Of a stretch of 38,000 bases of DNA, positions 9,762 to 37,753 are shown in pieces. Under the pieces are notes generated by a model, which worked only from the letters and a program-made list of their open reading frames with translations, did not search any database and was not told the origin of the DNA. The stretch is from Gammaproteobacteria bacterium. GTDB taxonomy: Bacteria; Pseudomonadota; Gammaproteobacteria; QNFE01. The DNA is taken from assembly GCA_003645455.1 (NCBI GenBank), contig QNFE01000016.1, positions 1-38,000 on the forward strand, read 5' to 3'. Made by a program: the position numbers and the translations under genes. The stretch's first letter is position 1; every line of letters starts with the position of its first letter.

Positions 9762-9764
9762 ATT

Positions 9765-9923: not shown

Positions 9924-9926
9924 ATA

Positions 9927-12247: not shown

Positions 12248-12280
12248 ATAAAATAACTCCAAAATAAATAAAAAACGAAT

Positions 12281-12286: not shown

Positions 12287-12306
12287 ACAAAAGATTTATC
12301 TTAATA

Positions 12307-12476
12307 GAGACCTTTGCATAATTCAAGCACAATTTATAACAACAATAAAATGCACCTAAAAATGCACCTATTTTACCAAAAAACTCGTCAAATAGCAAGC
12401 TATTTTCCTCTTTTTTAATAAAATATGCACTATTTTCTTATTATTCTAAATCGCACTTGAATTATGCAAAGGTCTC
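12307..12476. mobile_element. MITE copy 2 (170 bp)
   Basis: Perfect 21 bp terminal inverted repeats beginning GAGACCTTTGCATAATTCAA, flanked by perfect 5 bp repeats TAATA (12302-12306 and 12477-12481). It is in the opposite orientation to copies 1 and 3. The extra 11 bp come from a tandem duplication of AAAATGCACCT inside the element. It lies 10 bases beyond the der stop, between der and the ppiA operon. Confidence 0.9.
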
Positions 12477-12486
12477 TAATATAATT

Positions 12487-18008: not shown

Positions 18009-19046
18009 TTAAAATTTTCTAGCTAATTGCCCACAAGAGGCATTTATATCAAGCCCACGAGTGCGACGTATCATAACTCTTATTCCTTTGTTATGCAAAT
18101 AATCGGCAAATTTTCTTATTACATTTTCATCTGATGTTTGATAATCACAACCTGAAAATGGGTTATAAGGAATAAGATTTACCTTAACCTGCAATGATGA
18201 TAATAACTTGACTAATTTTTTAGCCTGCATCATATCATCATTGACATTTTTTATCATCGCATATTCTATCACTATATGTTTTTTTCTGTCCGTTTCATTT
18301 TTTACAAACCTATGGCAAGCCTGGATTAAATCATTCAGAGGATATTTTTTATTCAATGGCACTAATTTTTCTCTTAATTTATCATCCGCTGCATGTAATG
18401 AAACCGCCAGACTTACATCTATATCACTCCTTAACCTATCCATCGCAGGGACAACGCCAACTGTGCTTACTGTCACCCGTCTTTTGCTGTGATTGTAGCC
18501 ATTATCGTCCAACAAAACAGCCAAAGTTTCAAGCACAGCTTTGTAATTTAACAAAGGCTCGCCCATTCCCATAAAAACTACATTGCTAATAACCGCAGGC
18601 TGTATCAACTCACTCATTAAGCGATATTGACCGATAATCTCAGCGGCGGTAAGATTACGAGCAAAACCTGAAAAACCTGTGGCACAAAAAGAGCAATCCA
18701 AAATACAACCAGATTGTGATGACACACACAAAGTTCCGCGATTATTTTCAGGAATAAATACCGTCTCAATCAAATTCTGATCCGCCAATTCTAACAAAAT
18801 TTTAATCGTGCCGTCGGATGATTTTTGTTTTTTAATAATTTTAGGCTCATCAAGACAAGCATTTTGCTCCAAAAACTCAATAGATTTTTTAGAAAAATTA
18901 GTCATTTGCGAAAAACTTGTCGCCTGTTTTTGATACAACCAACTCATAAGTTGGACGGCACGATATTTTTTCTCGCCATTTTCAATAAAATACCGCTCCA
19001 AACTTTGGCGACTTAACCCGATTAAATTTTTTTTTTCTGTTTTCAT
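18009..19046 (-). CDS. rlmN: Dual-specificity rRNA/tRNA adenine C2-methyltransferase
   Basis: Radical-SAM enzyme that methylates C2 of A2503 in 23S rRNA and A37 of some tRNAs. The 4Fe-4S ligands are C114, C118 and C121 in SGCILDCSFCATGF; the methyl-carrying cysteine near the C-terminus is C338 in INASCGQLARKF; GEPLLNY is the SAM-binding GEP motif. At 345 residues it is complete. Its ATG shares one base with the res stop (TAATG), so it is probably translated from the same message as the upstream restriction operon. Confidence 0.95.
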   Translation of the reverse strand: MKTEKKNLIGLSRQSLERYFIENGEKKYRAVQLMSWLYQKQATSFSQMTNFSKKSIEFLEQNACLDEPKIIKKQKSSDGTIKILLELADQNLIETVFIPENNRGTLCVSSQSGCILDCSFCATGFSGFARNLTAAEIIGQYRLMSELIQPAVISNVVFMGMGEPLLNYKAVLETLAVLLDDNGYNHSKRRVTVSTVGVVPAMDRLRSDIDVSLAVSLHAADDKLREKLVPLNKKYPLNDLIQACHRFVKNETDRKKHIVIEYAMIKNVNDDMMQAKKLVKLLSSLQVKVNLIPYNPFSGCDYQTSDENVIRKFADYLHNKGIRVMIRRTRGLDINASCGQLARKF

Positions 19047-22000
19047 TATGGTAAAATTTTATCAAACATGGTTTTGATATAAGTGTTTTTGTCATCTTTT
19101 TGAAATAAAATATTTTTATTCATCAATTCTTTTTTTGTAAAATCATTATTTTCTAATCCCAAATATCCTGTGTTTGAAATTATAAAAGAATTTAAAATTA
19201 TACTGTTATCATTTAGATTTTGTTCTTTTTCTTTGATGGTTTTGGATAAATTTATTTTTTCACTATGTTTTAAATCTGTATGATAAATGCCCTTAGGGTC
19301 AATAAAATTTATATATTGTGTGCCATTCTTTAAAATCCACATAATAAAATCAGGATAAAATCCACTGCCCCCTGCAAAAAACCCTATGCCAGTTTTGGCT
19401 TGGTTTCGCAACAAAAATACCTCGCTTTTATCATCATCATTATTATTTTCATTAGATAAGTAGCCTTCTAAGTCTTTGATAAAATCCATTTCGCCCTTAT
19501 TTAATTCTATGGGTGTTATATTGATAGTTTTTAAGTTTTTTAAAGATTTTGTTTGATAAAACAAAGGATTATACAGGTGGGATAAACTATTGAATGATTT
19601 CAATCGTTGCAACTTTATAGTTGATTTTATATTTTTATTTTCTTTTATCTCCTGTTTTAATATGTTAAGCTGTTGAATTAAATTATCATATTCATCTTTT
19701 TCTTGCTCTGCAACAAATATTTGATACTCATCAATAAAATTAGCATCGTTGTCGTTATCGTTCAGATTTTCATAAACCATAAAACCTTTTTCATAGTTAT
19801 TTTTATGATACTTATAAAATTCATCTGTATATTTTTTAAGCAACATTATAAAAGAATCTTGCACTCTTTTGTAATCATTAAAATTGTTAATTTTAAAATA
19901 ATCATCAGGGGCTTCTAATCTATCATACCAACCATCTTCTTGGATAAAATTATTATAGATAATCGCTTTATCAATAGTTAAGTTAAAATAGCCTTTTTCA
20001 TTTTTGTAATCTATAATTTCTGTGTATATTTGGTCTGTGTTTAAAAATGCTAAGTCGGTTTCTTTGTTAAATTTAAAGTTATGCGGTTCGTTAATATAAT
20101 CTTTATCATCACTAGCAGATTTTATGCCTATGATTTGGGCTTGAATATATAAATTTATAACAACTTTTTTTGCTATGTTGTTATAATCTGTGTTTTCTGT
20201 GTCATAAGACAATTGTATATTTTCATTATCTTGGTATTTTTTGCCCTCTTGTAATTTTAAAATTTTTAAGTTTTTCTTTTTATAGGCATTGTTTTTTAAA
20301 ACTGGCAACACCATATCATATCTATCACCACTTGGCACTCCTTCACTTTGTAGATAGGTTTTAAAAGCATCCATATAATTAGCTTTTAAGCCGAAGATAT
20401 TTAGGGTTTCAACGGCTTGGTATTTTATTTTTAATTTTTTACCACTTATAGCTGCACTTCTTTTGAGACAAAATTCATAACCTTTGAGACGCACTCCACG
20501 ACCAAAAAGTTGAATAACCTGCGAACCTTCACTTTTGCCCATATTTAAAAGCCCCATCGTAGAAACACGCCAACTGCTCCAACCTTCGGTAAATTTTCGC
20601 GAACCGATTAAAATATTTATGGTTGATTCTGCATTATTGATATTTAAAAACAAGCTTTTATCAAAATTGTTACTTGAATGTTTTAAGTTAATTTCAGGTT
20701 TTTGACATAACTTTAAAAATTTTTTGGTATCACCTATGTTTATAACTCCGAAATAATCTGTTGCATTTTGTCCTATTTTCAAAGCAATCTCACCATCAGC
20801 TGACTTTAATTCTTCTATCTGTAAACTGCCACCATTGTTGGTATGAAACACTATTTTTAAAATATCCTGATATAACTTTGCTTCATTTAAGCCCAAAGAC
20901 ATAAGATAAACAAATCTATCGGCAAATATATCAGATGAATTGGTGTTGGTGATTCCACTATTGCCGTTCATTATGTTTTTAATTGCTCTTATTGTAGATT
21001 CTCTTGCTTTTTGGGAGGTAAATTTTTCAATGAATTTTAAAATATTAGTGATATCTGACCCCTCGTTTTTTGATAGGGTTTTGGTAACCTTGCCACCTGT
21101 AAAAACCATCAATGGGTTGGTTATATTATATTCTGCCAGCTTCTCATAATTACCATTAAAAATCTTTTTTTGTTGATAAAAACTCAATAACGAACCAACC
21201 AGATAATTATATTTTATCAAATCCTCATCTGGCTCTTTTGTCAGATTCAATATCCTATAATCCTTGCCAAAACCATCATTATAAAAATGCTTATAACTAT
21301 AATCAAAAATAATTGATTTTGCATATTCCTGGATTAAGTCGTCTTTTTTTTCACCTTTTGCAGCACCTATGGCTTGTCCGAAGGTGGCACTATATTCAAA
21401 AGCAAAACCTCTCTGGCTTAATTTATCACGATTAGTTTTCCACTCATCGCCACCTGTGCCGCGATGCCCCTCATCAATAAAAACCAAATTATTGTTATCA
21501 AAACTATCAACAGCAAATGTTGTCTCTCCCTTATTTTCTTTTAATTTGCTTATCTCCAAAACCTCAACGATGGGGGTTGATAAATTATTTTTAAATAAGG
21601 AGCCAGATGACGACTCTTCTGTAAACCGACAAGCATCAAGACCATTATTTTTAAATTCTTTTAAATGTTGGTGGCTTAATCCACTATTAGGAGTAATTAA
21701 AATCGCTTTATTTATCTGTTGGTTATTATAGTATGTAAATTGCATCAGGTTGATGTGCATAATCAAGGTTTTACCAGACCCTGTGGCACTATAAAAAGCA
21801 ATTTTATTAAGATCATCTAATTCAAATTTATCAATCTTATTTTTGGGTGATTTTAGGCAAATATTTGGGTTAAAAACATCATCAAGATATAGATTCAATT
21901 CTTTTAATAAGTTTTCTTTTGATGAAAAAAATCTATCAAGGTAAATTTCAGTAAACAATAACATAAAATATTGAAAATATTTCCACTTAATTTTTTGGGT

Positions 22001-22309
22001 TAATTTTTTGCTGTGGCGGACAATATTATTATCATATTCCAAAAGTTTTGTTTTATCTAATTTTTGGTTATGGTTATGGTTATCATTATTATTGTAGTTG
22101 ATAACAAGTGGCAACAAACCATAGTAAAAATCAGATATACCCTGCTCGTCTATTGTATATTCATATCTATTGTCGTTCTTGATAAGATCTGCTATATCCT
22201 GCAAACTATCAACATTATCATCGCCAAAAAGTGACAGCAAATAAGAATTTAACACTAATTTTTGATTAAATGGCATAGGTGATGACGATAACTTTTTTGG
22301 AGATTTCAT
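19046..22309 (-). CDS. res: Type III restriction enzyme Res subunit
   Basis: ATP-dependent translocase/nuclease of a type III restriction system; acts with Mod on unmethylated sites. A superfamily 2 helicase core has Walker A SATGSGKT (about 175-181), DEGH box in VFIDEGHRG (279-282) and YSATFG; the helicase C-half contains GSRKFTEGWSSWRVSTMGLL and QLFGRGVRLKG. The C-terminal PD-(D/E)XK nuclease is visible as FYPDFIMWIL ... NFIDPKG (about 987-1006). Intact over 1087 residues. The ATG at 22309 overlaps the fic stop as ATGA; the frame reaches a TTG four codons earlier. The stop overlaps the rlmN start. Confidence 0.92.
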   Translation of the reverse strand: MKSPKKLSSSPMPFNQKLVLNSYLLSLFGDDNVDSLQDIADLIKNDNRYEYTIDEQGISDFYYGLLPLVINYNNNDNHNHNQKLDKTKLLEYDNNIVRHSKKLTQKIKWKYFQYFMLLFTEIYLDRFFSSKENLLKELNLYLDDVFNPNICLKSPKNKIDKFELDDLNKIAFYSATGSGKTLIMHINLMQFTYYNNQQINKAILITPNSGLSHQHLKEFKNNGLDACRFTEESSSGSLFKNNLSTPIVEVLEISKLKENKGETTFAVDSFDNNNLVFIDEGHRGTGGDEWKTNRDKLSQRGFAFEYSATFGQAIGAAKGEKKDDLIQEYAKSIIFDYSYKHFYNDGFGKDYRILNLTKEPDEDLIKYNYLVGSLLSFYQQKKIFNGNYEKLAEYNITNPLMVFTGGKVTKTLSKNEGSDITNILKFIEKFTSQKARESTIRAIKNIMNGNSGITNTNSSDIFADRFVYLMSLGLNEAKLYQDILKIVFHTNNGGSLQIEELKSADGEIALKIGQNATDYFGVINIGDTKKFLKLCQKPEINLKHSSNNFDKSLFLNINNAESTINILIGSRKFTEGWSSWRVSTMGLLNMGKSEGSQVIQLFGRGVRLKGYEFCLKRSAAISGKKLKIKYQAVETLNIFGLKANYMDAFKTYLQSEGVPSGDRYDMVLPVLKNNAYKKKNLKILKLQEGKKYQDNENIQLSYDTENTDYNNIAKKVVINLYIQAQIIGIKSASDDKDYINEPHNFKFNKETDLAFLNTDQIYTEIIDYKNEKGYFNLTIDKAIIYNNFIQEDGWYDRLEAPDDYFKINNFNDYKRVQDSFIMLLKKYTDEFYKYHKNNYEKGFMVYENLNDNDNDANFIDEYQIFVAEQEKDEYDNLIQQLNILKQEIKENKNIKSTIKLQRLKSFNSLSHLYNPLFYQTKSLKNLKTINITPIELNKGEMDFIKDLEGYLSNENNNDDDKSEVFLLRNQAKTGIGFFAGGSGFYPDFIMWILKNGTQYINFIDPKGIYHTDLKHSEKINLSKTIKEKEQNLNDNSIILNSFIISNTGYLGLENNDFTKKELMNKNILFQKDDKNTYIKTMFDKILP

Positions 22310-23418
22310 AATATTTGCCAATGACCGCCTTTCAAACCATCTACTCTGATTAATCTATTTTCGTCTTTTAATTTAATCATGTCTCGTTGTATTGTTTTGT
22401 CGGTGACATTCAATTTATCGGCTATCTGCAAAACTGTTAAATATTTATTTTTTTCAATCAATTTTATTATATTTTCCAGTCGTTTTTTAGGGACATTTTT
22501 AGGGACATTTATAGGGACATTTTTAGGGACATTTTTAGGGACATTTATAGGGACATTTATAGGGACATTTATAGGGACATTTATAGGGACATTTATAGGG
22601 ACATTTTTGGCTTTTCTATCTTTTTGATTTTTTTCTAAATCCCGTATTGTTTTTAAAATCACCTCTAACATAAACTCTATGAAAGGTGTGCTTTCTCCCA
22701 AACTTCCTGACTCTTCCAAAACATTATAATACCTCTCTTGATTATCCCTTATGATGCTCTCTGTGGGAACTGCATTAAAAACTTGTCGCCAATGATATAA
22801 AATCACACTTTGCCACAGCCTGCCAATCCTGCCATTGCCATCACTAAATGGATGAATAAATTCAAATTCATAATGAAACACACAAGACTTTATAAGTATG
22901 TGTTCGTCGCTATTTTTAAGCCATGCAAATAAATCTGTCATTAAATTAGACACAATACCATGGGGAGGTGCTATATGTGAGACACCACCTTTACCACCGA
23001 CACCTACATTTATGCCTCTGAAATTACCAGCAGTTGTTAAAATATCATTCATCAATATGTTGTGTGCTTTAAGCAAATCATCTAAACTATCATATCTATA
23101 ATTTTCAAACTCTTTATAGGCATTTATAGCGCCCTCAACTTCCAAAACCTCTCTGTATGTGCCTAATACTTTTTTGCCCTCTAAAATAGCCGTAATTTTT
23201 TCTTCTCCCAGAAAGTTACCTTCTATCTCCAAGGTGCCGGCGATAGTTTTAATGCGGTTTATTTTGCGAAGTTTTGGAGTTATTAGCTGGGCGGCTTGAT
23301 ATTCTAACTTAGTTAAATCCTCGCCTATTGCTGTCGCCAAAGACAACATTTTAGATGTTATGTTGTAGGGTGGTTTATAACCCTTATAAATTTTATTATT
23401 ATTATCTTTATTGTTCAT
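22306..23418 (-). CDS. Fic-domain AMPylase-like protein with winged helix
   Basis: Fic proteins transfer AMP (or other nucleotide parts) to hydroxyls of target proteins. The catalytic HPFSDGNGRIGR (residues 189-200) is complete. An N-terminal autoinhibitory-type motif (S/T-x3-E-G/N) is seen as TLEIEG (62-67), in the class II Fic position. Then come ten tandem NVP(I/K) tetrapeptides (272-311) and a C-terminal winged helix (about 318-370, with LTVLQIADKLNVTDKTIQRD), suggesting DNA binding. The ATG at 23418 is preferred to a TTG three codons upstream. It lies between mod and res, overlapping both, so it belongs to the restriction operon: a regulator, accessory toxin or modifier of the complex. 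The target is unknown. Confidence 0.9.
   Translation of the reverse strand: MNNKDNNNKIYKGYKPPYNITSKMLSLATAIGEDLTKLEYQAAQLITPKLRKINRIKTIAGTLEIEGNFLGEEKITAILEGKKVLGTYREVLEVEGAINAYKEFENYRYDSLDDLLKAHNILMNDILTTAGNFRGINVGVGGKGGVSHIAPPHGIVSNLMTDLFAWLKNSDEHILIKSCVFHYEFEFIHPFSDGNGRIGRLWQSVILYHWRQVFNAVPTESIIRDNQERYYNVLEESGSLGESTPFIEFMLEVILKTIRDLEKNQKDRKAKNVPINVPINVPINVPINVPINVPKNVPKNVPINVPKNVPKKRLENIIKLIEKNKYLTVLQIADKLNVTDKTIQRDMIKLKDENRLIRVDGLKGGHWQIL
22489..22608. repeat. Ten 12-bp tandem repeats in fic
   Basis: Exactly ten contiguous copies of AGGGACATTT(A/T)T (plus strand), coding Asn-Val-Pro-Ile or Asn-Val-Pro-Lys on the minus strand. The only variable position switches Ile to Lys. They form the linker between the Fic and winged-helix domains; copy-number change keeps the frame. 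Confidence 0.97.
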
Positions 23419-26400
23419 TGTTGCCAAACATTAACTTTTCAAATTCTTGTTCTATTAAAACAGCATTTTTTAAATTGCTGTCGCCGTTGACATAAACTAT
23501 ATCAAAATCATCTAAAATAAAAAGTTTGTTCTGCTCGCTTTGTTGCACGAATTGATTTAATTCGTCATTAGTTTTGTTGTCTCGCCAGATTATAAGAATT
23601 TTCTCGTCTTTGAGGTTTTGCCCGGTAATCGTTAAAAAGCCTTGGTTGTTATTAGCAAACTGACAACAATTAACATCTCTCTTATGACAAGGGGACATGT
23701 CCCCTTGTTGGTTCTTATGTAAGTCCGAAGATATATCCTTAACTGCAACTGCCGAGTTATTAAAATCAATTTTTTTAACTATGATTCCTAACAGATAATT
23801 AAAAGTTTCTATTAAATCAATATTTGTATCTTTGGTTTCTCCGACAGACGAGGTAGCGATTTTGAGTTTATAATCAAATGGAGTTTTAAAAGTATCTATA
23901 TTTAAAAGTGATTTTTGCGATTCATAATCCAAAGAATAGTTTAAAATATAATCCTCTTTTAATTTTTTATTTTTTTCAAAAACATCCTGTTGGTCTTTCG
24001 TTTGTTTGGCAAATTCAAGGTTATTGAGAGTATCTTCATAACTCTCTATTTTAAAATATTTAAAAAGTTGCGATATGCCGTTTTTTGTGCCATTTTTATT
24101 ATTTTTATTGTTTTGCGGTTTGCCGTTTTTCCATTCATCGCTATAAATTACTTTTTGGATTCGTGGTTTCAAAACTGTGTCAAAATATTCGCCCATTTCA
24201 ACGAGGATATATTTTCTTTTGCCGTTATCCTCACGATTCAAATTTATAACTGCATGCCCTGTTGTGCCAGAGCCTGCGAAGTAGTCAAGGATTGTTTTTG
24301 AGTGTTCTTTATATTGTATCAGGTACTTAATTAGAGACACAGACTTTGGATATTTGAATACTTCTTCACCAAACATGTTTATTAAATTTTTTCCTGCTTG
24401 TTCTGTGGTAGAAACACCAACTCCTTTATCTATAAAATTAGGTGGCACCTCTAAATCATAACTATTTTTTTTGTAAGAAAGAACAATGCTTTTAGAGCAG
24501 TTAATTGTTGTAAAATTATCAAGTTCTTCATTTAATTTATTCTGCGTCCAAATAAATTTGTTTTCAAAAGTTGCACCATTAAAATTTTTACCATTTTTGA
24601 TTATCATATCATTTAACAGAGTGTTAGGATATTTTGTAGTTCCATAAATTCCTGATTTTATAGTTGTGTCCTTGATTTTACAATTTATACTGTTAGCAGG
24701 AAAATTTAATTTTTTTATAGTATTTTGAGGTTTAGTAAATGGGTCATCGCTTGAACTGTTTTTTTGGACACCTTTGTATTTTTTAGAATCTTTCTGTTTT
24801 TCATAACCCAATACATACTCTATATTTTTTTTAATTTTTAGCGATAAATTTGGTGGAGTAGCAGATTTAAACCAATTCCATTGCCCTAAAAAATTATCAA
24901 CACCAAATATTGAGTGTTTTAATATTTTCAATTTTTCTATTTCGCTATCATCCATGCTTGTAAAAGTGTTACCATCATCACTCATTAACTCTCTACCCAA
25001 AGCCAACCTATCAAACATAAAACTTAACCAACTGCTATGTTGATAACTATCATTATATAAAAATCCATCACTTCCAGTATTATAAGGCGGATCAATATAT
25101 ATAGTTTTTATTTGGTTTTGGTATCTGTGTTGCAATAAATTTAATGCCCCAAAGTTTTCACTTTTTATTAAAACTCCATCAATGGAATCATCAAGGTTTT
25201 CGAACTCGTTTAATAATTTATATTTGAATTTGATGTCAAAAAATTTGGTGTCTAATACGAGATATTGATATTGCTGCTCTTTTAAGTTGGCAAGGTTTTT
25301 AATTTCTACATCAAAAAGGTTTTGCCACTCTTTTAACTGTTCTTGGTTGGCAAAAATTTCTTTATAATATTTCTCATCTATTTTATCGAGAGTCAGGCAA
25401 TAATTAGTTTCAATGATAAACTTTTTCTTCTCCCATAATCTTTTTTGCAAGTTTTCTAATTGTGATAAAAAGTTTATTATTTTTTGTGCCACTTCTTTGA
25501 ATATTTTTATCTTACCCATTACCTCGTCATATTTGATGGGGTTGCTGTTTATAATATCATCAATGAATAACATTTCATTTTTAATATAAAAATCTAATTC
25601 CCGATTTAAAAATCCTTGTAAATCTTTGTGGATAAAATAATCAAAAGAATTTTTGCTGGTATAACTTTTTAAGTGTTTTTCAAGGAGTGTTCTGTTTTTG
25701 TTTTTTTCTGTGGGGGATAAAGTGTTTAGTGCTGTTTTAAAGTTTTCATCTTTAATATTTTCAAGGATTATATTTATTGCTTGTTTGTTTAATTCGTCTT
25801 GTTTAGATCCCCTGTCTACTGCTTTATAATCAAAATTTATATGCAGTTCGTTATCTTTTTTTGACAAGGGGACATGTCCCCTTGTTATAACCGCATCTAA
25901 TGGTTGTGCTTGTGAATCAATCAGAGACTCCCTATGTGAGGTTAAAAGTTCACATCCTATATAGACAAATCTTCGCTCTTTGTCGCCTGTGGCTTTGTTG
26001 TTGTTTTGGGTTATATCTGCCTCTGATAGTTTAAAATGAATAGTTTTGTTTGCTATTTTAAAACTATAATCTCTAAAATACTCACTACTTTTTATATAAT
26101 ATTGATCTGCATTCGCCCAGTGGAGTTTTACCTCTTCGCCTTCGTAGGGAATCGCATAGGTATCTTTTTTATAACGGCGGAGGCTAACAAAATCACCATC
26201 TTTATAATATCGCTTGAAAAAATTAGATAGGTGCGAGAATACATCATTTTCAAGGTCTTGATTGGTTGATAGGTTTGATAACTTTTGATTTAATTCAATA
26301 TATCTTTTAACATCATCAAAACTCTCACAGAAATTTTTAGTTGCTTCATCTCCATCAATATATTTAATAACAGTATCTTCTTTTTTTAACTCCTCTAATT

Positions 26401-26602
26401 CATCTTGCTCTGCTTTGTTTTTACTTTTAGAAAAAGCATCTGTAATGTTATTTAATAAATCCTTTCCTAAAAACTCATTTATCTCATGGCTTTTAATGTT
26501 CATAATCCGATAAATACCAAAGTCTAAATCACTTTGATCAAGTTGAAATATTTGGTTTAAAATTTTTACCAGTTTTTGGTAATTTGGTGGTTGTTCTGCC
26601 AT
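23408..26602 (-). CDS. mod: Type III DNA adenine methyltransferase Mod subunit
   Basis: N6-adenine methyltransferase that sets both the methylation and target recognition of a type III system. Order DPPYNTG (504-507) then ILDYFAGSGTTGHA (775-779) is the beta class, as in other Mod proteins. The region between (about 590-765) should hold the target-recognition domain. At 1064 residues it is much longer than classical Mod (~650), with a ~480-residue N-terminal extension of unknown role and a C-terminal ~200-residue tail. Two copies of a 22 bp DNA palindrome are embedded in the coding sequence, at about residues 239-247 and 965-972. First gene of mod-fic-res; no Shine-Dalgarno is evident. Confidence 0.93.
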   Translation of the reverse strand: MAEQPPNYQKLVKILNQIFQLDQSDLDFGIYRIMNIKSHEINEFLGKDLLNNITDAFSKSKNKAEQDELEELKKEDTVIKYIDGDEATKNFCESFDDVKRYIELNQKLSNLSTNQDLENDVFSHLSNFFKRYYKDGDFVSLRRYKKDTYAIPYEGEEVKLHWANADQYYIKSSEYFRDYSFKIANKTIHFKLSEADITQNNNKATGDKERRFVYIGCELLTSHRESLIDSQAQPLDAVITRGHVPLSKKDNELHINFDYKAVDRGSKQDELNKQAINIILENIKDENFKTALNTLSPTEKNKNRTLLEKHLKSYTSKNSFDYFIHKDLQGFLNRELDFYIKNEMLFIDDIINSNPIKYDEVMGKIKIFKEVAQKIINFLSQLENLQKRLWEKKKFIIETNYCLTLDKIDEKYYKEIFANQEQLKEWQNLFDVEIKNLANLKEQQYQYLVLDTKFFDIKFKYKLLNEFENLDDSIDGVLIKSENFGALNLLQHRYQNQIKTIYIDPPYNTGSDGFLYNDSYQHSSWLSFMFDRLALGRELMSDDGNTFTSMDDSEIEKLKILKHSIFGVDNFLGQWNWFKSATPPNLSLKIKKNIEYVLGYEKQKDSKKYKGVQKNSSSDDPFTKPQNTIKKLNFPANSINCKIKDTTIKSGIYGTTKYPNTLLNDMIIKNGKNFNGATFENKFIWTQNKLNEELDNFTTINCSKSIVLSYKKNSYDLEVPPNFIDKGVGVSTTEQAGKNLINMFGEEVFKYPKSVSLIKYLIQYKEHSKTILDYFAGSGTTGHAVINLNREDNGKRKYILVEMGEYFDTVLKPRIQKVIYSDEWKNGKPQNNKNNKNGTKNGISQLFKYFKIESYEDTLNNLEFAKQTKDQQDVFEKNKKLKEDYILNYSLDYESQKSLLNIDTFKTPFDYKLKIATSSVGETKDTNIDLIETFNYLLGIIVKKIDFNNSAVAVKDISSDLHKNQQGDMSPCHKRDVNCCQFANNNQGFLTITGQNLKDEKILIIWRDNKTNDELNQFVQQSEQNKLFILDDFDIVYVNGDSNLKNAVLIEQEFEKLMFGNNEQ
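23687..23708. repeat. 22-bp perfect palindrome in mod, copy 1
   Basis: Core AAGGGGACATGTCCCCTT. The surrounding 25 bases are identical to the copy at 25864. Here it is read in the frame giving QQGDMSPCH, in the C-terminal tail of Mod. Confidence 0.95.
25864..25885. repeat. 22-bp perfect palindrome in mod, copy 2
   Basis: Same palindrome as at 23687 but read in a different frame, giving ITRGHVPLS in the N-terminal extension of Mod. The frame stays open, so both copies are tolerated in-frame insertions. Confidence 0.95.
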
Positions 26603-29954: not shown

Positions 29955-29980
29955 ATTGAAAATTAAAAACATTTATCCAT

Positions 29981-30113
29981 AATCGGAGGTGGGACTTTAG
30001 TCCCACTTTTTGAACGAAGTTCAAACAACTTTTTTTGCAAGTTTTAATTTACCGTTTTTGCTCTATATGTTGCAACAAGTTGCAAAAGTGGGACTAAAGT
30101 CCCACCTCCGATT
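29981..30113. repeat. 133-bp element with perfect 30-bp inverted arms
   Basis: The arms 29981-30010 and 30084-30113 are exact reverse complements. Each arm itself contains the 18-base palindrome GTGGGACTTTAGTCCCAC. The 73-base middle holds two more palindromes, TTGAAC-GAA-GTTCAA and TTGCAAC-AA-GTTGCAA. It lies between the convergent cysG and nuclease genes, where it could terminate transcription from both sides. Confidence 0.95.
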
Positions 30114-30188
30114 GGAATTTTACATAGTTTAGAAGTAAGGCAAAATTTAGTTATTTGACAGAATCGGAACGAGTTGAAAAATAAGTTA

Positions 30189-30878
30189 TTAGTTGCCATC
30201 TAATTCTTTCAAGTATCTTCTTATAATGTTCCACTCATTAGAAAAAGTATTTAATTCTATGATTGGCATATCTTTAAAATTAAGCAGGATATTATTGCCT
30301 TCAATTTCTTTTATTGCATCTTTATTTTCTTTGCCCCATTTTCTGTCTTTAATTCTTTTTGGTGCCAAATAAACAAGTTTAGCTTGTTTTATTTGCGACC
30401 ATTTGTATTCTGGTAGTTTTTTAACAATTTTTTCTTTATATTCTTTGTATTTTGGATTAGTTAACCTCCCAAGAAAAGTATACAAAAATTCTGCACTCTT
30501 GTTTTCTATTCTTTTAATAACTTTCTTATATCTGTTATATTGTTTTATGCAAAAAGAATTGCTATCAGTTTTAAGTTCCACAAAATACAAAATATTTTTA
30601 TCCTCATTTAACAACAAATAATCTATATTTTTAGATCGCTTGTTTTTACTATTTTCTCGCTTGTTTTTACTATTTTCCTCGTTATCAAATGGAAACTCTG
30701 CCCCAATAAGAATATAATTACCCTCATCAATTTTACCTTTTTCTGCAAGCTTATTAAAAACACTTTTAATAAAAATATCAAGTATTGGTGCAATTTCCCT
30801 CTCTACTTGCACCTTTGGCATATCTTTATTTCCGATAATCGTCCCCATCAATTCCTTCAAAAATTTATTATCACTCAT
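30189..30878 (-). CDS. Putative PD-(D/E)XK nuclease-like protein
   Basis: No named family recognised. The 229-residue protein has NIDYLLLNEDKNILYFVELKTD (about residues 83-104, split here by one loop), the D...ExK pattern of PD-(D/E)XK nucleases, followed by a helix with Q and Y that often supports this site. A 21-base duplication just before the site gives NSKNKRENSKNKR. It has a good AGGAG ribosome site seven bases before the ATG. It is the last gene of a five-gene minus-strand run, 23 bases after the metallo-beta-lactamase gene. Confidence 0.65.
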   Translation of the reverse strand: MSDNKFLKELMGTIIGNKDMPKVQVEREIAPILDIFIKSVFNKLAEKGKIDEGNYILIGAEFPFDNEENSKNKRENSKNKRSKNIDYLLLNEDKNILYFVELKTDSNSFCIKQYNRYKKVIKRIENKSAEFLYTFLGRLTNPKYKEYKEKIVKKLPEYKWSQIKQAKLVYLAPKRIKDRKWGKENKDAIKEIEGNNILLNFKDMPIIELNTFSNEWNIIRRYLKELDGN

Positions 30879-30901
30879 TTTAACGCTCCTAAAAAAAATC
30901 G

Positions 30902-32170
30902 TTAAATTATAATGTTATCGCCATCATCCAAAACCTTGACATTTTCAAAATGTTTGTTATATTCGTTTTTGTGTTCGGTATGAACTGGGATCAGAGTTTT
31001 GGGATTTATGGCTGTGGCGAATTTTTTTAAAGTTGCTAAATCAGCATGACCGCTGGTGTGAGCATATATCCAGTTATAATTATCTTTTAAATTTTTATAC
31101 ATACTCACTGCATCATCTTCGCTATATTTATGCTCTAAATGACCTATCCATTGATTGTAAATTATGTTGGCTGTTTTTAAATCAAAATGATTTATAACAT
31201 TTTGAACTCTCCAAGCACTTACTTTTAAAAAATAGTTTTGCGGATTGTTTTTTATGTCGTCAATTTCCACCACAATATCTTTTTTGTTAAATATTTCTTT
31301 TAAAAAACTACCAAAATATTCAGGATTTTTTTCGATAACTCCATACTGCCTCCCTACAAGTTTTGTAATAACTTGCACATCGCCCCAATCTTTGTTCGGA
31401 ACACTATCGCTGACTAATTTAACCTGTTCTAATGCCCATGCCGTATACATATCTACAACAAAGATTTTATTTAATCTTTTGCAAGCACGATAGGCTGAAA
31501 CTAAACTGTCTATATTTTGTGATGAACTTATCATAAAAGATAAATTATCATTATCTTTGATTGATTGATAAATTCTATCCTCAACTGCCTGTTCGGTTGG
31601 AAACTCATCGTTTGATCGTTGCATCATCGTGCCTTCTAACAACAAAATATCTGGGTTTTTTAGTTTTTGATTTTTAAGAATGATATCAAAAAGTTCTGAT
31701 TTTCTGCCGTGGGCTCTGAAATCGCCACTATAAACTATTTTTTTATTATCTGCCTCAATTAAAAAAACAAATGCCTCACAGGCGGAGTGATCAATTAAAA
31801 GTGGGGTAATTTTTATGTCGCCGATATTAAAACTTTTTGATTTTTCAAAATATTGAAAGTTGTTTGTCAGTAATTCCTCATGTCCGCTCTTGTCTTTATT
31901 TGGGACAAACAAACGGCTACTATTGATTAGTTTTTGTGATAACTCGCCACAATAAATTGGAATATTTTTGTCAATATCTGCGATAGCACCGAAGTGATCT
32001 TTGTGCGGATGTGATATAACAATGCCATCAATTTTGTGTTTGATGGCAGCAGGTTCGGTTTTATCATTTAACGGTGTGCCATAATCTAATAAAATTTTTG
32101 TCCTATTAGTTGATATTTCAATACATGTTCCGCCGATTTCATTTGTTCCTTTGTGAATTTGAATTTTCAT
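30902..32170 (-). CDS. Beta-CASP metallo-beta-lactamase nuclease-like protein
   Basis: Metallo-beta-lactamase fold, similar in layout to RNase J/CPSF-type nucleases. Metal motifs: SHPHKDHFG (HxHxDH, about residues 53-61), DHSACEAF, YSGDFRAHGR, and towards the C-terminus HTSGHA and IPVHTEH. A helical insert between these fits a beta-CASP domain. The 422-residue length is shorter than RNase J (~550), and the C-terminal RNase J domain is missing. RNA or DNA substrate cannot be told. AGGA lies six bases before the ATG. The context with three nuclease-like genes suggests a role in an accessory (defence-type) module rather than housekeeping RNA decay. Confidence 0.8.
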   Translation of the reverse strand: MKIQIHKGTNEIGGTCIEISTNRTKILLDYGTPLNDKTEPAAIKHKIDGIVISHPHKDHFGAIADIDKNIPIYCGELSQKLINSSRLFVPNKDKSGHEELLTNNFQYFEKSKSFNIGDIKITPLLIDHSACEAFVFLIEADNKKIVYSGDFRAHGRKSELFDIILKNQKLKNPDILLLEGTMMQRSNDEFPTEQAVEDRIYQSIKDNDNLSFMISSSQNIDSLVSAYRACKRLNKIFVVDMYTAWALEQVKLVSDSVPNKDWGDVQVITKLVGRQYGVIEKNPEYFGSFLKEIFNKKDIVVEIDDIKNNPQNYFLKVSAWRVQNVINHFDLKTANIIYNQWIGHLEHKYSEDDAVSMYKNLKDNYNWIYAHTSGHADLATLKKFATAINPKTLIPVHTEHKNEYNKHFENVKVLDDGDNIII

Positions 32171-32257
32171 ATTTTTTCCTATTTTGTTAAATTGTTAATT
32201 TTGCTTTTGCTACCTTGATGATTTATTGATTTTTTAATAACAATAAAATCAAACCTA

Positions 32258-33289
32258 TTATTTTTTATCAAATAAATTCTTAATTTCTTCGGTGGTTGGC
32301 AGAGTTTTTTGCATATCTTTTGGCAGTTGATTTAAAAATTTATACTCTGCTACACCTGTGGGCTGATTGCTGTTGTCTAAGGCATACTCCACTATTGTCT
32401 CGTTTTTTGATTTACAAATAATCAAACCGATTGTTTCTTTATCATCTTTGGTTTTTATGGTTTTATTGACAGCACTCATATAAAACCCTAATTGCCCTAT
32501 ATGTTTCGGTTTAAATTCTGTTGTTTTTAACTCTATTATTACAAATCTTTTTAAAATGTAGTTGTAAAATAATAAATCTATAAAAAATTCTTTATCGCCA
32601 ACATTTAACTTGTATTGTTTGCCGACAAATGCAAAACCTGTCCCCATCTCCATAAGAAATGAGCAAATATCTTGAGTCAATAATTTTTCTAAATCTTTTT
32701 CTTTTGCTTTTTCTGATAAGTTTAAAAAATCTAATATGTAGTTTTTTTTAAAACTTTTTTGCACTATTCCCTCCTCTCTATTTGATAAAGTATTTTTGAA
32801 ATTTGATAAAAGTTTTCCATCTCTGCTATAAAGATTTAGCGATATTTGATGATCTAAAATTGTTCGTGACCATGAATTTTCTATTGTTTTGTTGATATAA
32901 AAAAAGGCTTCTGTGTTGTCTTGTATTTTATCTAAAATTAAGCGAATGTGTCCCCAAGGAATTTGTCCCACAACCTGTGGGATTTTTTTATTTTCTTGAA
33001 AAAAAGAATAACATTTTTTCATATAAAATAAATTTGTTCGCGAAAAACCCTTAACATCTGGCATATCTCTTTTAATATCTTTTTCAATTTGTCCGATAAA
33101 ATCATCGCCCCAGTTTGCATCCCTTTGTTTGAGAGAAATATTTTTACCAATAGAAAAATAAAGATTTATTAGTTCTGTATTGACAGACATTAAAGCTTTG
33201 TTTCTTGCTTTTGTAATATCTGCTTTTATTTTTTCTAAGAAGTTATTGTATTCATTTGTTGCCTCAAATGATTTTTGTATAATTTTCAT
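32258..33289 (-). CDS. DUF1016 / YhcG-type PD-(D/E)XK nuclease
   Basis: The N-terminal DUF1016 domain (about residues 10-160) has NLYFSIGKNIS, FSRTNLFYMKKCYSFF and GQIPWGHIRLILDKI, characteristic of the YhcG family; the C-terminal nuclease domain (about 190-330) has FFIDLLFYNYILKRFVIIEL then KT, the D...ExK site. These 340-residue proteins are common next to restriction systems and other defence genes; their biological role is not settled. 29 bases downstream of the small unknown gene. Confidence 0.9.
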   Translation of the reverse strand: MKIIQKSFEATNEYNNFLEKIKADITKARNKALMSVNTELINLYFSIGKNISLKQRDANWGDDFIGQIEKDIKRDMPDVKGFSRTNLFYMKKCYSFFQENKKIPQVVGQIPWGHIRLILDKIQDNTEAFFYINKTIENSWSRTILDHQISLNLYSRDGKLLSNFKNTLSNREEGIVQKSFKKNYILDFLNLSEKAKEKDLEKLLTQDICSFLMEMGTGFAFVGKQYKLNVGDKEFFIDLLFYNYILKRFVIIELKTTEFKPKHIGQLGFYMSAVNKTIKTKDDKETIGLIICKSKNETIVEYALDNSNQPTGVAEYKFLNQLPKDMQKTLPTTEEIKNLFDKK

Positions 33290-33318
33290 ATTTTTGCCTT
33301 TTAAAAAAATTAGTTATT

Positions 33319-33945
33319 TCAACAATATTTTTCTATAAAATCGTCTGTTGCTTCTTTTAAGTGTGTTATGTCCATAGTGCCACCATTGATTTTAACTGAT
33401 TTTGATCGCAGTGTTTCATAGTCTTTTTCCTTCGGGTCTTCTTCTGTTTCAAACTCATAATTCCCAAATTCTTCTAATTTTTTGTATTCAAAATCATCTT
33501 CTGTTATTGTTTTATTGTTTTCAAACTCTCCACAACAAAAACCTATATAAAAACTTGGTTCATTTTCATCTTTCATAATATACATATCAACAAATTTATT
33601 GCTAACAGCAAACAGCACTCCAAAAATTGCTCTATCCCAAATCTTATCTATATCCAAATATTCTTCTTTTTCATCCCATTTTGAACATTCTTTAAATTGT
33701 GGTTTTTTTTCATCAATGCTTGCAATAACAGTTTTTTCATAAATTTCTTTTAAAAATAACCAATAATCAAGTTTCGTTTTTTCGGCTGCAAGTTTTGCTT
33801 TGTAAGAATTTTCCAACAGGTCAAGGGATTGATCTGTTATTTTGATTTTTTTACCAAGCAAATTATCAACAGCTTCACGAACAGCATCATTGTTATAGTA
33901 AAGTTGCAATGATTCAGGGACTTTAATTTTCATATTTTTTTCCAT
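33319..33945 (-). CDS. Unknown protein paired with PD-(D/E)XK nuclease
   Basis: Not recognised. 208 residues, acidic, with an N-terminal segment KKIKITDQSLDLLENSYKAK that could be a helical pair and a C-terminus rich in Glu/Asp. No signal peptide, membrane segment or catalytic motif was seen. The ATG at 33945 has an excellent AGGAAGG ribosome site. It overlaps the end of the preceding nuclease gene by 16 bases, so the two products are probably made together and may form a complex; inhibitor or specificity partner are both possible. Confidence 0.75.
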   Translation of the reverse strand: MEKNMKIKVPESLQLYYNNDAVREAVDNLLGKKIKITDQSLDLLENSYKAKLAAEKTKLDYWLFLKEIYEKTVIASIDEKKPQFKECSKWDEKEEYLDIDKIWDRAIFGVLFAVSNKFVDMYIMKDENEPSFYIGFCCGEFENNKTITEDDFEYKKLEEFGNYEFETEEDPKEKDYETLRSKSVKINGGTMDITHLKEATDDFIEKYC

Positions 33946-34715
33946 ATTTCCTTCCTAAAAGAATGAAAACAAAACTCTTCATAAGAGATATTGTTTATTT
34001 TTAATTTCGAACCTTTAAATATTTCTCCACTATTTTGTGATAAAATATTTTCCCAATTTCTTAACAAAGTCTCCCAAGATAAGCACAGCCAAGGCTCTTT
34101 TGTTTGAAATTTTTTATCTGGCTTTTCACCTGTTTTTGTCAGATAAACTAAATCATAACTAACACCTTCTTCCTTTTTCTTTTCCTTCGCCCAATTTCTA
34201 TATGAACTTAGTTGCTCTTTTTTTAATATATGATTAAATTTTGCCTCAATGACTATATTCCTTTTTTTGTTTTTATTATTCACCCATTCAACAACGATGT
34301 CAATTCTTTTATTTTTTGTCTTTTTTTCAGCTTCAGCCACAATAACCTGATTTGGTTTTTCACCAAGCAAAGCTTCAACAAAAGATTTTCCAATCAATTG
34401 AGACTCATTGATATGAAAACACAATGTTTTTGTTATGTCGGCTTCTTTTAATTCAAAACCAAGCCTCATATCAGGAAAATTAAAAGAGTGATTTTTGCTA
34501 TAAATGCCAAAAACATTTTTTTCACCATAGAAAACATTTTGCTCTACCTCTATCAAATTAACTGGATTATAACACTCGTTATTAGACAATAATCTGCGAT
34601 ATCTTAATATGTTCTTTAAAAAAAGTTCGGAGTGTTCTAATAAACTTTTTCGGTTATTAGAAAAAATACTATCTAAATCGTATTTTTCTATTTGTTTTAA
34701 AATTTGTTCTATCAT
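33930..34715 (-). CDS. PD-(D/E)XK nuclease family protein
   Basis: 261 residues. The nuclease site is RIDIVVEWVN followed by NIVIEAKFN (around residues 137-159), then a helix QLSSYRNWAKEK, the arrangement of PDDEXK_4-type nucleases (PF14281-like, from memory). The C-terminal part (WETLLRNWENIL) resembles the same family. First gene of the five-gene run; overlaps the small unknown gene. A TATAAT lies about 105 bases upstream without a clear -35. Confidence 0.75.
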   Translation of the reverse strand: MIEQILKQIEKYDLDSIFSNNRKSLLEHSELFLKNILRYRRLLSNNECYNPVNLIEVEQNVFYGEKNVFGIYSKNHSFNFPDMRLGFELKEADITKTLCFHINESQLIGKSFVEALLGEKPNQVIVAEAEKKTKNKRIDIVVEWVNNKNKKRNIVIEAKFNHILKKEQLSSYRNWAKEKKKEEGVSYDLVYLTKTGEKPDKKFQTKEPWLCLSWETLLRNWENILSQNSGEIFKGSKLKINNISYEEFCFHSFRKEIWKKI

Positions 34716-34863
34716 GTTGTTTTAGTTTTTATTTTATTCATTGTGTTAATTGCACTCTAATAAATCTGCTCCACAACCTGTGGGATTTTAATGTTTTGCA
34801 CTTTTTTAAAGTTGCACTTATTATAACTCATTTTGTTTTTTCTGGTTTGAATTTTTCATATTT

Positions 34864-34885: not shown

Positions 34886-34901
34886 CCCTACAAAAAAATA
34901 A

Positions 34902-35096
34902 TCCGTCATAACGAGGCGGACGAATAAAGCGATGCAAAACAAATAATAAACCGCCGTGGTTATCTCTTGTTATTATCCGTATACTATTCTTTTAGTCTCT
35001 TGGATTGTCACAGGTTTAGTGCATACACGATGAGATTGCCGCGGCGGTTTAAGTGCTTGATATTACAGCATTTTTTCGTCCGCCTCGCAATGACGA
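34902..35096. repeat. Two GCGAGGCGGACG elements in inverted orientation
   Basis: 34902-34970 is a direct-orientation copy of the ~70 bp unit seen near 26751. 35027-35096 is a copy in reverse orientation with the ends CGATGAGATTGCCGCGGCGG and CGTCCGCCTCGCAATGACG. Together they flank a short AT-rich centre. Confidence 0.85.
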
Positions 35097-35102
35097 GGGG
35101 AA

Positions 35103-37208
35103 TCAAAAGCCGATTTTTTTGTTGGTATTCTCGCCTTTTACTGCTATCTCTTCCTCTAATCTATCTATTAAATCAGTTGCTTTTTCAACTGGTTTGAATC
35201 TATTTTGGCGGATAATAGCGGCAAAGTCTCCGGGCGTTAAATACTTTAAATCCTCTACTCGTTTTTTTAACGAATTTGAGACATCTTTGATTTTTAGCTC
35301 GCAGGCAAAAGATCTGAAAATATCCCAGCTTTGTTTGGTATTGAGATATTTAAATTCTAATTTTAAATCAAATCTACGCAAAGATGCTTTGTCAAGGGTT
35401 TCTAATAAATTGGTAGTGGCAATAAATATTCCTTTAAAATTTTCCATCTGCACTAACATTTCATTAGTTTGGGATAAATTCCATTGTGCTTTGGCACGAT
35501 TTCTGTCTTGTAAAAAAGTATCAGCCTCATCAAAAATCAGCACAGCTTTTTTCTTTTTGGCATCAGCGAAAGCGGCGGCTATGTTTTGCTCACATTCCCC
35601 TAACCACTTTGACTGTAAATCTGATGCCTTTTTTAAGATAACTTTTTTCTTTAAAGTCTGGGCTATATATCTGCCATAGGCGGATTTGCCGGTTCCTGCT
35701 ACCCCATATAAACATAGCCTTGCATCGCAAGTTTTCCTAATGCCTGCGACAAGTTGATTGAGATTTGCCGAGGTATTTAAAAACTTAGTGTCATAATTTT
35801 TTGGTAATTTATCAGTTAAGTTTTTAATCTTTTTTTGCACTTTTTGTAAACCCTGGGCTTGCAAAGTATTATTAACCAATCTTAAAATATTTTTATTCAT
35901 ATTAGCTTTTGGCAAAGACTTGGCAACTTTGGCCGCCGTGTTGATTACTGCCGGAGACAAGTGGGCATGAGATGATAATTTTTTCAATGTTTTGGCATCT
36001 AATTTATCATCACAGTTTTTAATGATTATTTTACGACGTTGTTTTTTATCAGGAACTGGCATATTTATTGATAAATCAAAACGGCGAATAACAGCTTGGT
36101 CTGCTCCATAAATATTATTGCTAATCCAAATTGTTGGCACCGGATTTGATTCCAAAGTTCGGTTTATCCAGGCTTTATTTTTTTGTTTAGCAGAGGTTTT
36201 AAAAAATGTATTTCCTGTGTCAAAAACATCTTCTGCCTCGTCATATAACAACAAAGCATTTTTGGTTTTCATAATCGTTTGTGCCATTTTATATGACTTT
36301 AACCTATCACTGCCACTAATTGGATCATCGTTTAAATCGGCATAACTTATTTCAAACAATTTTGTTTTAAAATGCTCTGCCACGACTTTGGCAAGTTGGG
36401 TTTTGCCGGTGCCGGGCGGTCCATATAACATAATATTAACCCCAGATTTGTTGAGGCTTTTTTGCAGATATGGCAACAACAAATCAATATCTTTTTTGAT
36501 ATGATTATAATCTTTTAATTCCAAATCTGACTTTGATACTGGACGGATAAAATCTGTTAATAGGTGTTCTATATCTTCGTCATTATTTGCCATTTTTTCT
36601 GAAAAGCGATCATTCAATGGGGAAATTTTTCGCTCCAAGCTATTGCGATCTTCTCGCTCTAAATTTACAATTGATGACTGGATAAATTTGCTATTTTGCG
36701 AGAACATTTTATCAATCGCTCGTGGTGGGATTTTTAAAATGACACTCAGAGATTTTTTTACCTGTGTAAGATTTAACTCACGACCTAATAAATCTGTCGC
36801 TGACTCCAACATTTGAGTTTGTTGCAAAATTATAACAAATTCCAGCACTTGACATTCGTATTCATTAAAATTCATCAAAGATGACAAACGAGAGATATTT
36901 TTTTGAATTGTTTTATTCGTTGATAACTGTTTTTTGCCATCAATTTTATCATAATCTACTCGCATTTGCTCCAAAACATCATTCCGTTTAAACTCATCGT
37001 TGCTATCGACAAATTTGCCAAGACCCAAATAATATGCCAAACTATCATCGTCAAAACGATTGCCATTATCAATAAATTCTCGATGTCCGCCGAGTTTAAA
37101 AATAATCCTATAAGTCCAAAGATCAATTTTGCCTTGCAAACACTTTGGCACATAATCAGTTTTATTGGTCGATACACTGAACGATTTTCTTCTTCTATAC
37201 TTTCTCAT
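35103..37208 (-). CDS. Tandem AAA+ ATPase
   Basis: 701 residues with two AAA+ modules: Walker A GPPGTGKT (263-270) and Walker B LLLYDEAED (319-327); then Walker A GVAGTGKS (502-509) and Walker B VLIFDEAD (556-563). Each module ends in an RRFD arginine-finger segment (near 375 and 611). The ~250-residue N-terminal domain is helical and not recognised. No membrane segment or protease domain. Such proteins form hexameric unfoldases or remodelers; the partner is not evident, but the nuclease genes downstream are on the same strand. The ATG has an AAGGAG site seven bases upstream, and a near-perfect sigma70 promoter lies 130 bases upstream. Confidence 0.9.
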   Translation of the reverse strand: MRKYRRRKSFSVSTNKTDYVPKCLQGKIDLWTYRIIFKLGGHREFIDNGNRFDDDSLAYYLGLGKFVDSNDEFKRNDVLEQMRVDYDKIDGKKQLSTNKTIQKNISRLSSLMNFNEYECQVLEFVIILQQTQMLESATDLLGRELNLTQVKKSLSVILKIPPRAIDKMFSQNSKFIQSSIVNLEREDRNSLERKISPLNDRFSEKMANNDEDIEHLLTDFIRPVSKSDLELKDYNHIKKDIDLLLPYLQKSLNKSGVNIMLYGPPGTGKTQLAKVVAEHFKTKLFEISYADLNDDPISGSDRLKSYKMAQTIMKTKNALLLYDEAEDVFDTGNTFFKTSAKQKNKAWINRTLESNPVPTIWISNNIYGADQAVIRRFDLSINMPVPDKKQRRKIIIKNCDDKLDAKTLKKLSSHAHLSPAVINTAAKVAKSLPKANMNKNILRLVNNTLQAQGLQKVQKKIKNLTDKLPKNYDTKFLNTSANLNQLVAGIRKTCDARLCLYGVAGTGKSAYGRYIAQTLKKKVILKKASDLQSKWLGECEQNIAAAFADAKKKKAVLIFDEADTFLQDRNRAKAQWNLSQTNEMLVQMENFKGIFIATTNLLETLDKASLRRFDLKLEFKYLNTKQSWDIFRSFACELKIKDVSNSLKKRVEDLKYLTPGDFAAIIRQNRFKPVEKATDLIDRLEEEIAVKGENTNKKIGF

Positions 37209-37366: not shown

Positions 37367-37569
37367 ATCTTTTTTTGAATTAAATTTAGAAAAAATACCA
37401 GAACTTGGCTATAATTATCTCTGTAATGTTGGTTTTAATCCTGTTGTGTAGGCATTGAGAGTTATAAATTATTTTGATAAAATTTATTTAAGATATTTTC
37501 TATTGGGACAGGTTTTGTCCTTATTGATTTTGCATTTTTGCTGGAAAATGAATTACTATCTATTATTAT

Positions 37570-37728
37570 GAGACCTTTGCATAATTCAAGTGCTGTTTAG
37601 AGAATACAGAAAATAGTGCATTTTTATAGCAAAAATGAGGAAAATGGCAAGTTCTTTGACGAATTTTTGCTATAAAAAGGTGCATTTTGTGTATTTTATA
37701 AATTGTGCTTGAATTATGCAAAGGTCTC
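37570..37728. mobile_element. MITE copy 3 (159 bp)
   Basis: Perfect 21 bp terminal inverted repeats, plus an internal perfect 16-base inverted repeat (TTTTTATAGCAAAAAT and its complement), so the single strand could fold into one long hairpin. Flanks ATTAT and ATATT do not form a clean 5 bp duplication. Same orientation as copy 1. No coding capacity: an open frame across it is translated repeat. Confidence 0.9.
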
Positions 37729-37753
37729 ATATTTAAAAATAAATATACAAACC

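What the first reader, a model, noticed from the sequence alone, without database searches (positions are those of the whole stretch)
30189..34715. Five-gene nuclease module: two PD-(D/E)XK proteins, DUF1016, beta-CASP MBL and an unknown partner
Four genes carry nuclease-type active sites and the fifth (208 residues, unknown) overlaps the first nuclease gene. Gaps are 16-base overlap, 29, 87 and 23 bases, consistent with one transcript. I do not recognise the set as a named defence system. Co-occurrence of DUF1016 and PDDEXK_4-type nucleases near restriction genes points to phage or plasmid defence.
Basis: partly seen in the sequence, partly recalled or inferred. Interest (0 to 1): 0.68.

Follow-up and report, generated by a model that had tools for sequence, protein, structure and literature searches.

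The report
RNase gene with swappable nuclease partner
The five neighbouring nuclease-type genes are not one system but three side-by-side units, and the last two belong to a widespread, apparently unnamed two-gene module in which an invariant RNA-cutting-type enzyme is paired with a nuclease gene that has been exchanged over and over between otherwise near-identical loci.

Summary
In detail: five co-directional genes (g1-g5, minus strand) with the stated gaps, four with nuclease active sites. The five-gene system is not supported. None of 80 loci around the closest relatives of the MBL gene (g4) encodes g1, g2 or g3. The pair g1+g2 occurs without g3-g5 in two other gammaproteobacteria. DUF1016 (g3) has five dispersed copies in this genome. 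The cluster is therefore three units: g1+g2 (PDDEXK_4 nuclease plus acidic partner), g3 alone, and g4+g5.

g4+g5 is the interesting part. In 85 loci of many phyla the beta-CASP MBL gene has a PD-(D/E)XK-type gene immediately next to it in 67, always on the same strand, 39 of them overlapping. All ten catalytic MBL residues are invariant in 86/86 sequences. The nuclease belongs to at least six families. Partner family changes at least 23 times on the MBL tree, close to shuffled labels (27.4), while its side changes only 3 times (shuffled 22.5). MBL genes 94% identical in DNA carry unrelated nucleases, with breakpoints at ORF ends. I found no description of this module in the open-access papers searched. 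A conflict role (anti-phage defence or addiction) is inferred, not shown.

The parts
33930..34715 (-). g1: basic PD-(D/E)XK (PDDEXK_4) nuclease, 261 aa, pI 9.2; unit 1
   Evidence: PF14281 7e-13; D139 and E157-A-K159 invariant in three genomes
33319..33945 (-). g2: acidic partner of g1, 208 aa, pI 4.7, no known family; unit 1
   Evidence: Conserved next to g1 in L008 and L134; no usable Pfam or PDB match
32258..33289 (-). g3: DUF1016/YhcG PD-(D/E)XK nuclease; stand-alone unit 2
   Evidence: PF17761, PF06250; PADLOC PDC-S02 3e-132; four more copies in the genome
30902..32170 (-). g4: beta-CASP metallo-beta-lactamase of RNA type (motif C His397); constant partner of unit 3
   Evidence: Lactamase_B_2 + RMMBL; ten catalytic residues invariant in 86/86; nearest PDB 2az4 EF2904
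30189..30878 (-). g5: PD-(D/E)XK-type nuclease; exchangeable partner of unit 3
   Evidence: 40% identical homologue next to the MBL gene in Sulfuricurvum L047; HHalign to partner family c1; AF2 and Foldseek
34890..35100 (.). dispersed repeat (82 matches in the genome) upstream of g1
29960..30130 (.). dispersed inverted repeat (30-nt arms, 33 matches in the genome) downstream of g5

Best explanation
The cluster is three independent accessory units side by side between dispersed repeats: g1+g2 (nuclease with acidic partner), g3 (mobile DUF1016 nuclease) and g4+g5. g4+g5 is a local copy of a widespread two-gene conflict module. The constant part is a catalytically intact beta-CASP enzyme of the RNA-cutting type; the variable part is a PD-(D/E)XK-type nuclease, made with it by translational coupling and replaced as a whole ORF by nucleases of other families. 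Most likely mechanism (inferred): the nuclease is the recognising or attacking component, exchanged under arms-race selection, and the beta-CASP enzyme is the fixed partner that must be present for it to be tolerated or to work, by gating it or by adding RNA cleavage once infection is sensed. Shown: architecture, adjacency, invariant active sites, exchange. Inferred: enzyme activity, RNA substrate, complex formation, defence role.
For: Adjacency 67/85, same strand 67/67, gap at most 67 nt in 64/67, overlap in 39; the same families at offsets 2-5 only 9 times. Catalytic set invariant in 86/86 MBL sequences; motif C His marks RNA-type beta-CASP enzymes (PMC3095777). Partner family c1 has invariant E, D, E-x-K. 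Partner family changes at least 23 times on the MBL tree (shuffles 27.4, lowest 23) but side only 3 (shuffles 22.5). ORF-precise exchange: L056/L071, L061/L071, L070/L081; L046 and L047 (71% MBL identity) carry c1 and g5 between the MBL gene and the same downstream gene. Reciprocity: the c1 hits in plasmids and the one strong c1 hit in 369 genomes of the class all lie next to the MBL gene. Neighbours include WYL, Mokosh, Dpd, Qat and restriction families.
Against: No functional data. Defence neighbours were not compared with a control set. 12 loci have no partner within five genes by profile (two of them, L082 and L096, do have a c1-cluster neighbour), and three of the adjacent partners lie 491-633 nt away. 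g5 itself is joined to family c1 only by a profile match over the nuclease core (90% probability) and a model of moderate confidence whose best PDB match has E 0.011. The 80 loci are the best-scoring 80 of 406, mostly MAG contigs, some possibly misbinned.
Confidence: 0.6

Rival explanations
1. Five-gene defence operon: g1-g5 act together as one system.
For: Co-directional, short gaps, four nuclease sites, type III R-M genes nearby.
Against: No co-occurrence: 0 of 80 MBL loci with g1-g3; g1+g2 alone in two genomes; DUF1016 dispersed.
Confidence: 0.04
2. Toxin-antitoxin type addiction: the PD-(D/E)XK protein is a toxin and the beta-CASP protein a general antitoxin that accepts many nucleases, as PanA does for PanT toxins.
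For: Partner exchange comparable to Panacea partner swapping (PMC8832971). MBL can stand alone (L068 and L069 MBL DNA 90% identical over the whole ORF, L069 without recognised partner), while c1 was seen only beside the MBL gene. Short, often overlapping gene pairs.
Against: An invariant full catalytic site in 86/86 MBL proteins is not needed for an antitoxin that merely binds; the gene order (nuclease first or second) differs between clades.
Confidence: 0.3
3. Housekeeping RNA processing or DNA repair pair.
For: beta-CASP enzymes include RNase J and CPSF73; a DNA polymerase III alpha-like gene follows in two Campylobacterota.
Against: Patchy distribution (own genome plus one strong match in 369 genomes of the class), unrelated flanks, near-random partner exchange, plasmid location.
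Confidence: 0.08

Closest known systems
EF2904 (PDB 2az4) and RNase J / CPSF73 beta-CASP enzymes
   Same: MBL plus beta-CASP fold, motifs 1-4 and A-C, His in motif C
   Different: 422 aa against about 550 for RNase J; scores far below the RNase J cut-offs (69.6 against 400 bits); paired with a nuclease gene
Cas14 of type VII CRISPR-Cas
   Same: beta-CASP nuclease in an immune setting
   Different: 47 bits against a cut-off of 800; no cas genes among the window proteins scanned
Trypsin-MBL module (HamM of Hachiman and others, PMC12799240)
   Same: An MBL nuclease paired with a second gene and acquired repeatedly by defence systems
   Different: That MBL is ComEC-like and its partner is a trypsin-like protease; here beta-CASP with PD-(D/E)XK
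Panacea (PanA/PanT) toxin-antitoxin network (PMC8832971)
   Same: Constant gene with hyper-exchangeable neighbour
   Different: PanA is a DUF4065 antitoxin; here the constant gene is a catalytically intact beta-CASP enzyme and the partners share one nuclease superfamily
Shedu (SduA)
   Same: Closest fold match of g5 is the Shedu nuclease domain 8ti9 (E 0.011)
   Different: No sequence match; g5 is small and paired with an MBL gene
DUF1016 / YhcG nucleases, PADLOC PDC-S02
   Same: g3 is a clear member
   Different: Nothing; stand-alone, multi-copy

Membership tests
beta-CASP MBL family | Motifs 1-4 (D, HxHxDH, H, D) and A-C (E, H, H) | tested here: met
   D29, H54, H56, D58, H59, H128, D150, E179, H371, H397 invariant in 86/86
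beta-CASP MBL family | RNA-type substrate: His rather than Val in motif C | tested here: met
   H397 in 86/86; rule cited from PMC3095777; activity itself not testable
RNase J | Score above the curated RNase J models | tested here: not met
   69.6 bits against 400 (TIGR00649); 56.3 against 820 (RnjA)
Type VII CRISPR Cas14 | Curated Cas14 model, cas gene neighbours | tested here: not met
   47.3 bits against 800; no cas effector genes among the window proteins scanned
Trypsin-MBL module | Adjacent trypsin-like protease | tested here: not met
   Neighbours are g3 and g5
PD-(D/E)XK superfamily (g5) | Active-site D and E-x-K on the alpha-beta-beta-beta-alpha-beta core | tested here: met
   Foldseek support is weak and there is no Pfam match
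PDDEXK_4 (g1) | Above the PF14281 gathering score | tested here: met
   49.3 against 22.3 bits
DUF1016/YhcG (g3) | PF17761 and PF06250 | tested here: met
Five-gene system | Conserved co-occurrence of g1-g5 | tested here: not met
Toxin-antitoxin | Toxicity of one gene neutralised by the other | not testable with these tools
   needs expression assay
Anti-phage defence system | Protection against phage | not testable with these tools
   needs phage challenge
Shedu | SduA sequence family | tested here: not met
   No Pfam or PADLOC match of g5 to Shedu

The most novel reading that the evidence does not exclude
A new class of conflict system in which an invariant RNA-cutting beta-CASP enzyme is a universal partner (licence or immunity) for many unrelated families of PD-(D/E)XK nucleases, which are exchanged ORF for ORF at an almost saturated rate.
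Probability: 0.35. Interest if true: 0.8.

Novelty: new variant of a known kind. Interest (0 to 1): 0.6.

Why it matters
Constant-plus-variable modules show how defence and addiction systems diversify. Here the constant part is an intact enzyme rather than a binding protein, and the variable part is replaced with breakpoints at ORF ends while gene order is kept, so pairs differing in little more than one ORF exist in nature. That makes the question 'which component decides specificity or toxicity' directly testable by comparing natural pairs. It also gives hundreds of proteins annotated 'MBL fold metallo-hydrolase' and 'hypothetical protein' a shared context.

Tried and rejected
Viral contigs with g1, g2 and g5 alignments: no relatives. 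Phage records: no g5; only remote beta-CASP proteins. An eight-row MBL alignment was too diverse to scan with; four rows worked. Plasmids: no g5. Structure of g2 without alignment: pLDDT 46, not used. PDB and Pfam for g2: nothing usable. Promoter and terminator scan: no more than chance. Rfam: only a tRNA. I considered a 19-nt match between the g1 leader and g3 as a DUF1016 remnant; its 14-nt core occurs three times in the genome, so it is suggestive but too short to rest on. The first gene-neighbour script stopped with an error after printing all but one locus (L124), which was left out. Literature: no paper found on a beta-CASP plus PD-(D/E)XK module; subscription papers and preprints mostly not held.

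Full report
Observation. The five ORFs exist as described: minus strand, 34715 to 30189, overlap 16 and gaps 29, 87 and 23 nt. The window is a whole 38,000-base contig of a 2.06-Mb assembly with no near relative among the genomes held. The compared genomes share only its class, which I take to be Gammaproteobacteria from the gene content (inference). Pfam gives PDDEXK_4 for g1, DUF1016_N plus YhcG_C for g3 and MBL plus RMMBL for g4, and nothing usable for g2 and g5.

Are the five genes one unit? No. A scan of 84,980 species genomes with an alignment of g4 gave 406 relatives, of which the best 80 were kept. A search of all their ORFs with g1, g2, g3 and g5 found only one hit, a g5 homologue immediately after the MBL gene in Sulfuricurvum (L047). 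g1 and g2 occur as an adjacent pair, each about 26-30% identical to the window's, in a Methylomonas koyamae plasmid next to WYL and HTH genes and in genome G322, both without g3-g5. g2 is otherwise rare: one further genome in 369 of the class. DUF1016 has five copies in this genome, one per contig on five contigs. The block lies between two kinds of dispersed repeat, with 82 and 33 matches in the genome. I therefore read it as three accessory units placed side by side.

The g4+g5 unit. In 85 loci (80 scanned minus one uncalled, plus six loci from the plasmid and class searches) I called ORFs, clustered neighbours and built profiles of the recurring ones. A PD-(D/E)XK-type gene of one of six families lies immediately beside the MBL gene in 67, always on the same strand, with gaps of at most 67 nt in 64 and overlaps in 39. 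The same families appear at offsets 2-5 only 9 times. Two further loci, L082 and L096, have c1-cluster neighbours that fell below the profile threshold. The largest partner family (c1) has no Pfam or PADLOC match in the members scanned, but its alignment has an invariant Glu, Asp and Glu-x-Lys, the PD-(D/E)XK catalytic set. g5 matches c1 over the nuclease core by profile comparison (probability 90%, E 1.5e-6). Its AlphaFold2 model (pLDDT 71.5) shows the expected core, and the top PDB matches include the Shedu nuclease domain and several restriction, XPF/Mus81 and cap-snatching nucleases, though none is significant on its own.

The MBL protein. All ten catalytic residues of the MBL and beta-CASP motifs are invariant in 86 of 86 sequences. 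Motif C is His, which in this family marks RNA-processing rather than DNA-processing enzymes (PMC3095777). The nearest solved structure is EF2904 (2az4), a hypothetical beta-CASP protein. It is not RNase J, nor Cas14 of type VII CRISPR, by the curated cut-offs.

Partner exchange. On an MBL tree of 86 sequences the side of the partner changes 3 times (200 shuffles: mean 22.5, lowest 16), so gene order is inherited. The partner family changes at least 23 times (shuffles: mean 27.4, lowest 23; 2 of 200 reach 23), so partner identity is almost independent of MBL ancestry. Among MBL pairs 70-99% identical, 17 of 51 have the same partner family. DNA comparisons show where exchange happens. L056 and L071 are 94% identical from 22 nt before the MBL start to 1 nt after its stop, and nowhere else. 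L061, independently assembled, shares the L056 partner. L070 and L081 share the MBL gene with its leader (87.5%) and the gene after the partner (92.7%), while the partner ORF between them is c1 in one and c2 in the other. The window's own family took part: in Campylobacterota the MBL gene is followed by c1 in L046 and by the g5 family in L047, and then by the same DNA polymerase III alpha-like gene.

Reciprocity and context. With a c1 query, plasmid hits (Cereibacter, Cupriavidus, two Rhizobium) all lie beside the MBL hits of the same records. In 369 genomes of the class the only strong c1 match (G091) is next to the only strong MBL match outside the own genome; one weak 49-residue match in G225 was not followed. 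Some MBL genes have no recognised partner, for example L069, whose MBL gene is 90% identical to that of L068. Neighbours of the pairs include a WYL-type regulator cluster (11 loci), Mokosh, Dpd, Qat, PsyrT, restriction and integrase genes. I have no control set for enrichment.

Mechanism. Shown: conserved pairing, overlapping or abutting ORFs, intact active sites, whole-ORF exchange of the nuclease. Inferred: a conflict module (my estimate 0.75), as direct anti-phage or anti-plasmid defence (about 0.45) or as an addiction-like pair with the MBL enzyme as restraining partner (about 0.3). The invariance of the MBL active site argues that it acts as an enzyme. The absence of lone c1 genes, against the existence of lone MBL genes, argues that the nuclease needs the MBL protein.

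The other units. g1 (pI 9.2) and g2 (pI 4.7) overlap by 16 nt here and stay adjacent in three genomes; a nuclease with an acidic inhibitor or accessory protein is the simplest reading (inference). g3 is a stand-alone, probably mobile nuclease. In another contig of this genome a DUF1016 gene follows an intact nucleotide-sugar dehydrogenase gene and is followed by a second copy of that gene's last 300 bases, the pattern called insertion with long target duplication for restriction-modification genes (established knowledge; the term occurs in the papers listed, which I did not read further).

Verdict. Kind: new variant of a known kind, because paired genes with partner exchange are known (Panacea), but not, as far as I could search, with a catalytic beta-CASP enzyme as the constant part.

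Noticed in passing
L137:5134-7812 (genome contig C24): A DUF1016 gene directly follows an intact nucleotide-sugar dehydrogenase gene and is followed by a second copy of that gene's last 300 bases: insertion with long target duplication, suggesting that DUF1016 genes move on their own.
   Followed up: partly
window 34715-34850: Two short exact matches to DUF1016 genes (19 and 16 nt) in the leader of g1; possible remnant of an earlier DUF1016 copy.
   Followed up: partly
window 19046-26602: Type III restriction-modification genes (Mod 1064 aa, Res 1091 aa) with a Fic-family gene between them whose protein has a run of NVPI/NVPK repeats (DNA repeat near 22484-22608).
   Followed up: no
window 35103-37208: 701-residue protein with two AAA domains, similar to the anti-phage ATPase IetA but far below its cut-off, without a visible protease partner before the contig ends.
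   Followed up: no
window 34890-35100, 29960-30130, 9760-9930, 12302-12482, 37567-37733: Dispersed repeat families; the first has 82 and the second 33 matches in the genome, the last three are copies of one element of about 180 bp.
   Followed up: partly
window 10680-11171 and 11672-12262: Two peptidyl-prolyl isomerase genes in near-tandem, 67% identical in DNA: a local duplication.
   Followed up: no
L070:10058-10468, L081:5735-6145 and five other loci: A small protein of about 136 residues that looks TPR-like follows the MBL-nuclease pair in seven loci and stays in place when the nuclease is exchanged.
   Followed up: partly
L046:2485-3456 and L047:7819-8763: A short DNA polymerase III alpha-like protein follows the pair in two Campylobacterota with different nuclease partners.
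   Followed up: no
L041:9215-9859 and L043:9455-10024: In two more distant plasmid loci the MBL gene is followed by a metallophosphoesterase gene, overlapping by 4 nt.
   Followed up: no
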